DNA of 40,309 bases from contig JAAYKO010000029.1 in the NCBI GenBank assembly GCA_012522345.1, positions 1-40,309 of the forward strand. Reading direction: 5' to 3'. The translations under genes and the position numbers were made by a program. Shown one piece after another: positions 35,837 through 38,287 of this stretch. The DNA comes from Acholeplasmataceae bacterium (GTDB taxonomy: Bacteria; Bacillota_I; Bacilli_A; Acholeplasmatales; UBA5453). Below the pieces are notes generated by a model, which saw nothing but the letters and a program-made list of their open reading frames with translations, searched no databases and had not been told where the DNA came from. Each line of letters opens with the position of its first letter. Positions within the stretch are counted from its first letter, which is position 1.

Positions 35837-35916
35837 AACTAATCTCCTGAAAGCCAATATTTTCTCTCTTTAAAGTCATTATCTATCTCATTAAAATGCG
35901 AGTTTGTTTCGCTTAT

Positions 35917-35922
35917 ATTGTA
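35917..35922 (-). promoter_or_regulatory. Extended -10 promoter of the ROK kinase
   Basis: On the minus strand TG-A-TACAAT forms an extended -10 about 80 bp before the kinase ATG; the -35 is weak. Just downstream, at 35898-35912, lies GCGA-N7-TCGC, a small inverted repeat that could be an operator. I see nothing else in 35923-36077. Confidence 0.5.
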
Positions 35923-36077
35923 TCACATTTAGTAAATAATAACTATAATTTCTTTGGCATTGGTAGAGATAAAAACTACGAGTAACTAAAGATGCTTAAA
36001 ATAACACAATTTATTAGAAAATGCTAAATACTATTTAGTATTTAAGATAAATTTAGCAAAAAAAAGTGAAAAACTAT

Positions 36078-36106
36078 TTGAAAACGAGAAAAAACTGTGA
36101 TATCAT
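36078..36106 (+). promoter_or_regulatory. Promoter of the TrpXYZ-like ABC operon
   Basis: TTGAAA (36078-36083), 17-base spacer, TATCAT (36101-36106) with TG-A before it, so also an extended -10. Expected start near 36113, giving a leader of about 270 nt before the first ATG. Confidence 0.72.
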
Positions 36107-36165
36107 AGAGGAAATATGAAAAATGAAAAGTGATAATGATGATTAAAAAGCTTATTACAACAAAA

Positions 36166-36365
36166 TATTACTTTTTTTACTTTCAGGGAAGATATTGTGA
36201 ATAATACACTTCTGTGCTTTTACTGCTGAAAGTAAACTCATCAAATATCAAAGTGTTATTACGCAATATCTTGTTAAACAAAAGATAAAAAAAGTAATAA
36301 CACCAAATCAGAAAAAACCACTAAGACCAATGTGTTATTACTTTTATAGTAGTAGCACATTTTTT
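36166..36365 (+). promoter_or_regulatory. Structured leader RNA with competing arms, riboswitch- or attenuator-like, class unassigned
   Basis: Hairpin P1 pairs 36176-36186 with 36226-36236 (11 bp). From inside its loop, 36189-36199 can pair with 36262-36272 beyond the hairpin (11 bp, one G-U), forming a pseudoknot. Arm B (36287-36303) can pair with three partners. These are 36166-36178 (13 bp), arm A at 36253-36262 (10 bp) and arm C at 36332-36341, extended to 14 bp with 36290-36303. Arm C is also the 5' side of the terminator at 36331-36365. B with C therefore prevents termination, while A with B frees C to terminate. No T-box sequence or familiar riboswitch core is visible. A small-molecule or RNA ligand is inferred. 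Confidence 0.7.
36331..36365 (+). terminator. Conditional intrinsic terminator ahead of the ABC importer genes
   Basis: TGTGTTATTACT (36331-36342) pairs along its whole length with AGTAGTAGCACA (36348-36359), with two G-U pairs and a five-base loop, followed by six T (36360-36365). It ends five bases before AAAGGAGG of the first gene, so it lies inside the leader of its own operon. Confidence 0.82.
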
Positions 36366-36385
36366 CATTAAAAGGAGGAAGGAAA

Positions 36386-37363
36386 ATGAGGATTAAAAGA
36401 CTTTTAATGTTAGTGGTTGTAGGTTTGTTGTCGCTTGTCTTAATTGGCTGTGGCGAGAAAAAGATTGAGATTGGAATTTTACAGTATGCGGATGTTTTAG
36501 CTTTAGATGAAGCACGACAGGGCTTTATTGATGGCCTGAAAGATGCAGGCTATGAAAAGGGAAAAAATATTAACATTACAGTGTTAAACCCGCATGGAAG
36601 TTTTAGTGAAACCGAGAGTATGGCAAAAGTTTTATTAAGAAAAAGTGATTTAATCTTAGCGATTGCCACTCCAGCTGCAAGCGCGGTTGTCACTGAAGCA
36701 AAAGATCTCAATAAAAAAACACCAATTTTATTTACCGCTGTAACTGATCCGGTAGAAGCGAGTTTAATTGATTCTAATGAAAACCCGGGTGGCTACGTGA
36801 CAGGGACGAATGATATGAATCCAATTAAGGAGCAAATCGAATTAGGTCGCGAGTTATTGCCGGAAGCGACAAAACTGGGGATTTTGTATACTGCTGCCGA
36901 AGAGAACTCACAAATCCAGGCTAATATTGCGAAAATAGAAGCGGAAAAGTTACAATTTGAAGTAATTATAAAAACGATTGACTCGATAAACGATATTCAA
37001 CAAGTTGCAGGTCAATTAGCTAAACAAGTAGATTTAATTTATATTCCTACAGATAACGCGATTATCAGTTCAATTGGGATTGTCAATGAAGTTTCAATCC
37101 AACAAAAAGTTCCGATTGTAATTGCTGAAGAGAACACAGTAATAACTATTCCCGCAGTTACTTTAAGTATTAGTTATTATAATCTTGGTTATGAAACCGC
37201 TCAAATGGCAGTTCAAATTTTAAAAGATGGAGTCAAACCAAAAGATATTCCTGCAAAAGGCCTAACTCAAAACCGTTTAGTTGTTAACAAAAAACTATTA
37301 GAAAGCATCGGGATAACTGTTCCCGAATCTATTTTAAATCGTGCTGATGAGGTCTACGAATAA
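36386..37363 (+). CDS. ABC transporter substrate-binding lipoprotein (TrpX-like, PF04392 type)
   Basis: A 325-residue lipoprotein with lipobox LIGC (Cys22) and the ABC_sub_bind fold: IGILQYADVLALDEARQGF at the start of the mature part, FTAVTDPVEASL, PGGYVTGTNDM, LGILYTAAEENS and YIPTDNAIISS. These are hallmarks of the TrpX-like group. In Bacillota some members transport tryptophan under T-box control; others have different substrates. First gene of a SBP-permease-ATPase operon behind the unassigned leader. The substrate is not deducible from the protein alone. Confidence 0.92.
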   Translation: MRIKRLLMLVVVGLLSLVLIGCGEKKIEIGILQYADVLALDEARQGFIDGLKDAGYEKGKNINITVLNPHGSFSETESMAKVLLRKSDLILAIATPAASAVVTEAKDLNKKTPILFTAVTDPVEASLIDSNENPGGYVTGTNDMNPIKEQIELGRELLPEATKLGILYTAAEENSQIQANIAKIEAEKLQFEVIIKTIDSINDIQQVAGQLAKQVDLIYIPTDNAIISSIGIVNEVSIQQKVPIVIAEENTVITIPAVTLSISYYNLGYETAQMAVQILKDGVKPKDIPAKGLTQNRLVVNKKLLESIGITVPESILNRADEVYE

Positions 37364-38287
37364 ATGGGCTTCTTTGAGCAAGTTCTTTATATTTTAAAAG
37401 ACGGTATTGAATTAGGACTAATTTGGGCTTTACTTGCCCTTGGAGTATTTATCTCATTTAGAATTTTAGATTTTGCTGATTTAACTGCTGAAGGAACAAT
37501 TACACTCGGCAGTTCAATTATGGCTGTTTTATTGATTAAAACCGATAGTATTCTTTTAGGAATGCTAATCGCTTTTTCAGGTGGTTTTATTTCAGGAATA
37601 ATTACTGGTGTTCTTCACACTAAATTTAAGATTCCTCCAATTTTATCAGGAATTATTATGATGACTGCCCTATATTCTTTAAATAGGCGGATTTTAGGTA
37701 AAGCTTCAGTTTATTTAGCTGAAAATAAAACAATCTATACTTTTTTACGGACAATTATAGATAGTCCCTTTTTTGCTAAAGCTTTAACGTCTTTTAGCTT
37801 ATTGTTAATAATTGTAATAATGATTTATTTATTGTTTGGCACAGAAATTGGCATTAGTATCAGAGCGACAGGAATGAATCAAAAAATGGCTAAAGTCCAA
37901 GGCATTAACACTGATTTAATGATTATTTTTGGTCTAGCGCTTTCAAATGCCTTAATCGCCTTATGCGGTGCTTTAGTAGCTCAAAGTAATCGTTCAGCAA
38001 ACTTAGAAGTTGGGAGGGGAACGATAGTAATTGGTCTAGCTTCAATAATAATTGGCGAAATATTGTTCGGTAAAAGAACATTTAAAAATTGTTTAATTTC
38101 GGTTGTTTTAGGGAGTATTGTTTTTCAACTTTTAATTGGGATTGCAATTACAATCGGTTTAAATCCCAATGATTTAAAATTAATTCAAGCAGTTTTAATC
38201 GCTTTTATTTTAGCTGCTCCAGAAGTTAAAAAATGGCGCAAGAAAAATGGAGGGAAACAAAATGTTAAAGTTGAGCAATATATCTAA
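37364..38287 (+). CDS. ABC transporter permease (TrpY-like, BPD_transp_2 type)
   Basis: A 307-residue membrane protein with eight to nine hydrophobic helices and the family-typical start ILKDGIELGLIWALLALGVFISFRILDFADLTAEG. Its ATG directly follows the TAA of the substrate-binding protein gene with no gap, and its end overlaps the ATPase gene by 26 bp. It belongs to the same permease superfamily as branched-chain amino acid and ribose/nucleoside importers. Confidence 0.9.
   Translation: MGFFEQVLYILKDGIELGLIWALLALGVFISFRILDFADLTAEGTITLGSSIMAVLLIKTDSILLGMLIAFSGGFISGIITGVLHTKFKIPPILSGIIMMTALYSLNRRILGKASVYLAENKTIYTFLRTIIDSPFFAKALTSFSLLLIIVIMIYLLFGTEIGISIRATGMNQKMAKVQGINTDLMIIFGLALSNALIALCGALVAQSNRSANLEVGRGTIVIGLASIIIGEILFGKRTFKNCLISVVLGSIVFQLLIGIAITIGLNPNDLKLIQAVLIAFILAAPEVKKWRKKNGGKQNVKVEQYI

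What the first reader, a model, noticed from the sequence alone, without database searches (positions are those of the whole stretch)
36113..36385. Unassigned switch-like leader RNA ahead of a TrpXYZ-type importer
The leader has an 11-bp hairpin and an 11-bp pairing from inside that hairpin's loop to a point downstream of it (a pseudoknot). It also has one arm (36287-36303) complementary to three other places, one of which is the 5' side of a perfect intrinsic terminator. That is the full wiring of a transcription-termination switch. It lacks the T-box consensus expected for a tryptophan-type importer, and I see none of the conserved cores of riboswitches I know. It may be a new riboswitch class, or a divergent known one, whose ligand should relate to the transported molecule.
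Basis: partly seen in the sequence, partly recalled or inferred. Interest (0 to 1): 0.78.

Follow-up and report, generated by a model that had tools for sequence, protein, structure and literature searches.

The report
Tyrosine leader-peptide attenuator for amino-acid importer
The RNA ahead of this importer gene is not a new riboswitch: it encodes a tiny tyrosine/phenylalanine-rich peptide, and how fast a ribosome translates that peptide most likely decides whether transcription stops or continues into a tyrosine importer, as in the classic his, phe and trp attenuators.

Summary
The riboswitch interpretation is not supported. Homologous importer operons in other Bacilli MAGs carry equivalent leaders, mostly with strong Shine-Dalgarno sites and Tyr-rich runs, e.g. 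FYYYYYYFPRGCHV*, QYYYYYYFPRRCHV*, FYYYYYFPRIS*. I found about 33 of them. The pairings 2:3, 3:4 and 4:5 covary: partner-swap z = 8.6, 7.0 and 3.3 across 17 leaders below 70% identity. Modelled ribosome stalling on the aromatic codons favours 2:3 + 4:5 (antiterminator) over a ribosome at the stop codon in all 18 leaders tested. The margin for the window's own leader is small (0.96 versus 0.91). No Rfam family matches, and homologous operons without the leader often have a T-box instead; none has both. The substrate-binding protein keeps both residues that give C. difficile CD0873 its tyrosine specificity, so the cargo is probably tyrosine rather than tryptophan. This is a ribosome-mediated transcription attenuator: a new, apparently unreported member of a known kind.

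The parts
36078..36106 (+). sigma-70-like promoter, TTGAAA - 17 bp - TATCAT, with TG before the -10; transcript would start near 36113
   Evidence: consensus scan; 10 of 12 matches; a consensus match only
36139..36204 (+). leader-peptide ORF MIKKLITTKYYFFYFQGRYCE* (an in-frame ATG also at 36136 and a GTG at 36130)
   Evidence: ORF; homologous ORFs, mostly with strong SD, upstream of homologous importers; the window's own SD (AGUGAU, 36129-36134) is weak
36166..36183 (+). segment 1: control codons UAU UAC UUU UUU UAC UUU (Tyr Tyr Phe Phe Tyr Phe)
   Evidence: direct reading; the aromatic run is conserved in homologues; pairs over 18 nt with segment 4
36176..36186 (+).
   Evidence: partner-swap z = 2.5-2.8
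36226..36236 (+). 3' arm of P1
36184..36191 (+). 5' arm of early hairpin H1 (CAGGGAAG; CCAAG in most homologues)
   Evidence: conserved as CCAAG...CUUGG-CUUUUU in relatives; degenerate in the window
36209..36221 (+). 3' arm of H1 (CUUCUGUG) followed by CUUUU; probable pause site, possibly a weak early terminator
   Evidence: role inferred
36189..36212 (+). segment 2: last sense codons, stop codon and a few bases beyond; pairs with segment 3
   Evidence: covariation, partner-swap z = 8.6 (2:3) and 7.0 (3:4); pair counts
36282..36303 (+). segment 4: the switch arm; pairs with 1, 3 or 5
36332..36345 (+). segment 5: terminator 5' arm, or antiterminator partner of segment 4 (14 bp)
   Evidence: partner-swap z = 3.3-4.3
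36329..36366 (+). intrinsic terminator (5:6) with U tract, just before the importer's ribosome-binding site
36386..37363 (+). PF04392 substrate-binding lipoprotein of the importer; Glu248 and Tyr264 match CD0873 Glu263 and Tyr279 (tyrosine-specific)
   Evidence: Pfam; PDB best match 6hni; residue alignment
37364..38287 (+). ABC permease, PF02653
38247..39041 (+). ABC ATPase, PF00005

Best explanation
The leader is a ribosome-mediated transcription attenuator (his/phe/trp-leader type) that senses charged tRNA-Tyr and, in this copy, also tRNA-Phe, and controls an ABC importer for tyrosine. A ribosome translates the leader peptide while RNA polymerase makes the rest of the leader. When Tyr/Phe-tRNA is plentiful, the ribosome reaches the stop codon and covers segment 2; segment 3 then pairs with 4, segment 5 pairs with 6, and transcription terminates. 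When Tyr/Phe-tRNA is short, the ribosome stalls on UAU UAC UUU UUU UAC UUU. Segment 1 is then hidden, 2 pairs with 3, the freed segment 4 pairs with 5 (antiterminator), and the importer is transcribed. Without translation, segments 1:4 and 2:3 pair and the terminator forms. Shown here: the ORF, the pairings, their conservation with compensatory changes, and energy models of the states. Inferred: translation, stalling, termination efficiency and the cargo.
For: 1) Short ORF with a YYFFYF run; the control codons pair over 18 nt with the switch arm. 2) Homologous importers in several family-level groups have equivalent leaders, mostly with good SD sites, and runs of 4-8 Tyr/Phe codons. The ORF criterion is met in 18 of 20 upstream regions and at rate 0.0000 in dinucleotide shuffles. 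3) Pairings 2:3, 3:4 and 4:5 match the leader's own partner better than partners from other leaders: z = 8.6, 7.0 and 3.3 at <70% identity. Pair counts for 2:3 show up to 11 double-sided changes per position. The stop codon lies in or within a few bases of segment 2 in most leaders. 4) Constrained folding before segment 6 is made gives higher P(4:5) for a ribosome on the aromatic codons than at the stop codon in 18 of 18 leaders, with large contrasts in most, e.g. 0.91 vs 0.00, 0.99 vs 0.09 and 0.96 vs 0.27. 5) T-boxes occur in front of 12 homologous operons, none of which has an aromatic leader. 6) The binding protein carries the Tyr-specificity residues Glu and Tyr, as do 20 of 22 leader-linked proteins. 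7) Nothing in Rfam.
Against: In the window copy the Shine-Dalgarno site is weak. At equilibrium its models separate stalled from finished ribosomes poorly: P(4:5) 0.96 vs 0.91 before segment 6 is made, with the terminator favoured in both when complete. The argument there needs folding order (3:4 forms before 5 exists). A few homologous leaders (L031, L046, L048) also show weak switching in this simple model. 1:4 and P1 covary only modestly, and H1 not at all because it is nearly invariant. No expression data.
Confidence: 0.93

Rival explanations
1. A metabolite riboswitch of a new class: the RNA itself binds an aromatic amino acid (or other ligand) and switches the terminator.
For: Complex fold with a pseudoknot-like pairing and mutually exclusive arms; no Rfam match.
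Against: What is conserved is an ORF with aromatic codons plus simple helices that covary. No unpaired conserved core beyond H1 (CCAAG...CUUGG-CUUUUU) was seen across leaders. The geometry (control codons = segment 1, stop codon in or near segment 2) is explained by ribosome position.
Confidence: 0.03
2. A T-box (tRNA-binding) leader that has diverged beyond recognition.
For: T-boxes are common in this genome (9 matches) and stand before homologous importers in other genomes.
Against: No T-box match to this leader even at E up to 10; the T-box-bearing operons lack the aromatic leader peptide and vice versa.
Confidence: 0.01
3. Nascent-peptide arrest: the peptide (aromatic run followed by Pro-Arg in most relatives) stalls the ribosome in a ligand-dependent way, as in TnaC, rather than by lack of charged tRNA.
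For: The PR(R/G) that follows the aromatic run is well conserved in many relatives.
Against: That stretch is encoded by the nearly invariant RNA CCAAG, which forms H1; the window and its closest relatives have QGR/PGR/QGD instead; the codon run is long and of varying length and Y/F mix, as expected for tRNA sensing.
Confidence: 0.03

Closest known systems
his-operon leader (hisL) and pheA/pheST/trp leaders of enterobacteria (ribosome-mediated attenuation)
   Same: Short peptide rich in the sensed amino acid, stop codon in or near the next pairing segment, chain of mutually exclusive helices ending in an intrinsic terminator. The alternation 2:3 + 4:5 versus 3:4 + 5:6 matches the A-F scheme of hisL (from own knowledge).
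   Different: No Rfam match to any of these leaders; Tyr-rich peptide; in the window the control codons themselves can pair with the antiterminator strand (1:4); controls an importer rather than biosynthesis.
uORFC-13-1 motif of Acholeplasma aroF (PMC8632094)
   Same: Leader uORF with Phe codon(s), promoter, RBS and terminator in Acholeplasma, proposed attenuation for aromatic amino acids.
   Different: Exclusively upstream of aroF, run of U for Phe, 24 representatives. Here the gene is a PF04392 importer and the codons are mainly Tyr. I could not compare the two sequences directly.
His-leader attenuators of Erysipelotrichales, Peptostreptococcaceae and Bacillus cereus group (PMC9413887)
   Same: Leader-peptide attenuators in Firmicutes lineages lacking the T-box at that operon; found by comparing upstream regions.
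   Different: Histidine codons and his genes.
T-box-regulated trpXYZ of Streptococcus suis (PMC9382623)
   Same: Homologous PF04392 importer type controlled by termination in response to tRNA charging.
   Different: tRNA is bound directly by RNA; tryptophan uptake system; no leader peptide reported.

Membership tests
Ribosome-mediated transcription attenuator (his/phe/trp leader type) | Translated short ORF with a run of codons for the regulated amino acid | tested here: met
   ORF 36139-36204 with YYFFYF; homologous leaders with SD. Translation itself not tested; SD weak in the window.
Ribosome-mediated transcription attenuator (his/phe/trp leader type) | Intrinsic terminator upstream of the first structural gene | tested here: met
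   36329-36366; present in homologues
Ribosome-mediated transcription attenuator (his/phe/trp leader type) | Mutually exclusive antiterminator whose formation depends on ribosome position, conserved across relatives | tested here: met
   Covariation; stalled > finished in 18 of 18 models, but the contrast is small for the window copy
Ribosome-mediated transcription attenuator (his/phe/trp leader type) | Controlled gene belongs to metabolism or transport of the encoded amino acid | tested here: met
   PF04392 protein with CD0873 tyrosine-specificity residues
Ribosome-mediated transcription attenuator (his/phe/trp leader type) | Readthrough rises on starvation for that amino acid and needs leader translation | not testable with these tools
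   needs experiment
Known riboswitch class / T-box (Rfam) | Match to the covariance model at the curated threshold | tested here: not met
   no match in the window at gathering scores; only sub-threshold, irrelevant matches to E = 10 in 35900-36400
Tyrosine-binding PF04392 protein (CD0873-like) | Glu at CD0873 position 263 and Tyr at 279 | tested here: met
   window Glu248 and Tyr264; rule from PMC6816091
Tryptophan-binding TrpX (SP1069-like) | Ala and Gln at the same two positions | tested here: not met
   window has Glu and Tyr

The most novel reading that the evidence does not exclude
The family is a two-gate attenuator. The conserved early hairpin H1 (CCAAG...CUUGG-CUUUUU, overlapping the codons after the aromatic run) acts as a first, translation-sensitive terminator in front of the Tyr-sensing second one, so that untranslated leaders stop early and only coupled ribosomes reach the Tyr decision. 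Lineages would exchange this device for T-boxes at the same importer.
Probability: 0.15. Interest if true: 0.5.

Novelty: new member of a known kind. Interest (0 to 1): 0.38.

Why it matters
It removes a candidate new riboswitch class and puts in its place a family of about 33 tyrosine leader-peptide attenuators in Acholeplasma-like and related Bacilli, apparently unreported. T-boxes are abundant in this same genome and guard the same type of importer in other genomes, so it offers a clean comparison of two ways of sensing tRNA charging at one operon. It also predicts the cargo (tyrosine) of importers usually labelled tryptophan/TrpX.

Tried and rejected
Rfam at gathering score and to E = 10: only irrelevant sub-threshold matches. 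BLASTN of the leader against plasmids: nothing. Leader DNA in the rest of the genome: single copy. Code 4 reading (TGA = Trp, giving MKNEKW* at 36116) considered by eye: the neighbouring genes read normally under table 11 and relatives show no Trp codons, so rejected. Unspecific measure of 'segment 5 paired upstream' did not separate states; replaced by pair-specific probabilities. H1 partner-swap test uninformative because H1 is nearly invariant. Own-genome aroF: no aromatic leader upstream.

Full report
What was checked. The window region 36113-36385 lies between a plausible promoter (TTGAAA-17-TATCAT, 36078-36106) and a PF04392 - PF02653 - PF00005 importer operon. The leader is far more stable than dinucleotide shuffles (z = -5.4, none of 200 as stable), and a terminator of 14 pairs with a U tract lies at 36329-36366 (shuffles 0.1).

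The ORF list shows a short ORF, and the start at 36139, the one that lines up with the relatives, gives MIKKLITTKYYFFYFQGRYCE*. So one of the 'three other places' complementary to the arm is a run of control codons.

Relatives. The importer's binding protein was sought in the family, order and class and in GTDB contigs. Upstream of the homologues, short ORFs with Tyr-rich runs, mostly with strong SD, recur: MFNKNLQTQVYYYYYYQGDIMI (L010), MIKFSLTSKVYYYYYNPGRY (L009), MKPNVSLIAEFYYYYYYFPRGCHV (L024), MIKSINNVNQYYYYYYFPRRCHV (L025), MLVNFQNKFYYYYYFPRIS (L031), MKHLLACSQFYYYYYAPRGYRR (L033) and others. In a same-family genome (G002) the operon order is permuted to permease-ATPase-binding protein, and the leader, MILQFIQEQLYSYYYYNQGDVLINDLAF, stands before the permease. 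Forty further upstream regions gave about eleven more aromatic leaders. About 33 are now in hand. Under a fixed ORF rule 18 of 20 leaders score and dinucleotide shuffles never do.

Covariation. For each pairing I scored the leader's own two arms against arms swapped between leaders. With 17 leaders below 70% identity: 2:3 own 23.9 vs 16.3 swapped, z = 8.6; 3:4 z = 7.0; 4:5 z = 3.3; 1:4 z = 3.0; P1 z = 2.5; H1 z = 0.5 because it is nearly invariant (similar with 19 leaders). The best 2:3 duplex falls in the same register relative to segment 3 in nearly all leaders and shows many double-sided changes, e.g. 11 of 18 at offset +1 and 9 of 18 at +2. The duplex search favours standard pairs, so the swap test, not the raw counts, is the control.

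Mechanism. I folded each leader with everything upstream of and under a ribosome masked, for a ribosome on the aromatic run, at the stop codon, or absent. With transcription stopped just before segment 6, P(4:5) is higher for the stalled ribosome than for the finished one in 18 of 18 leaders: L025 0.91 vs 0.00, L026 0.99 vs 0.09, L034 0.93 vs 0.07, L037 0.96 vs 0.27, L021 0.76 vs 0.08. P(3:4) shows the reverse. For the window leader the difference is small (0.96 vs 0.91), so for it the switch must rest on folding order, 3:4 forming before segment 5 exists. In the absence of a ribosome the complete window leader forms 2:3 and the terminator. This is the alternation known from hisL (A-F) and, in shorter form, trp and phe leaders (own knowledge). 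Translation, stalling and termination were not measured.

Cargo. The best solved relative is C. difficile CD0873 (6hni, E 2.4e-51), ahead of 3lft and 3lkv. PMC6816091 reports that CD0873 binds tyrosine, 3lft tryptophan and 3lkv phenylalanine, and that Glu263 and Tyr279 set tyrosine specificity. The window protein has Glu248 and Tyr264 at these positions, as do 20 of 22 leader-linked proteins counting the window's own; the other two have Thr at the Glu site. The genome keeps chorismate synthase, DAHP synthase and a prephenate-dehydrogenase-type gene but shows no prephenate dehydratase (88.8% complete), so dependence on Phe uptake is possible.

Other regulators. Rfam finds nothing here. T-boxes are not absent from the lineage: 9 matches in this genome. 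They stand before 12 homologous importer operons in other genomes, none of which has an aromatic leader. The two devices therefore look interchangeable at this operon.

Prior knowledge. The nearest reports are a Phe-coding uORF before aroF in Acholeplasma (uORFC-13-1, PMC8632094) and His-leader attenuators in several Firmicutes lineages (PMC9413887). Searches for tyrosine leader peptides found no report of this family. The library is open-access only, so absence is not proof.

Verdict. A real switch, wrongly read as a riboswitch. It is a tyrosine(/phenylalanine) leader-peptide attenuator of an importer: a known kind of system, new as a family as far as I could see.

Noticed in passing
window 36184-36221; L020, L024-L027, L030-L034, L037-L039, L046, L048-L050: Nearly invariant early hairpin CCAAG...CUUGG followed by CUUUUU, overlapping the codons after the aromatic run; looks like a pause hairpin or a first weak terminator. 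In the window it is degenerate.
   Followed up: partly
G000 (own genome), contigs C2, C17, C34, C41, C42, C46, C56, C76: Nine T-box matches in the same genome, so the organism probably uses both T-boxes and leader-peptide attenuation.
   Followed up: no
L016, L017, L019, L064, L071-L074, L085, L089, L094, L098: Homologous importer operons in other genomes carry a T-box in place of the aromatic leader; specifier codons were not read.
   Followed up: partly
L095 and L100: Leaders of homologous importers with Phe-rich rather than Tyr-rich runs (FFFFF; YFNFFFFYF), suggesting cargo or sensing shifts toward phenylalanine.
   Followed up: no
L021/L029 and L102 (G256 contig C3): Two adjacent binding-protein genes in one genome, each with its own Tyr leader peptide.
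   Followed up: no
G238:C10:20311-21288 and G414:C2:12637-13614: Binding-protein homologues lie in a 673-aa open frame with one in-frame TAG in two related genomes; may be a tandem pair, a readthrough or a code peculiarity.
   Followed up: no
G000, whole genome: Chorismate synthase, DAHP synthase and a prephenate-dehydrogenase-type gene found, but no prephenate dehydratase; the assembly is 88.8% complete.
   Followed up: partly
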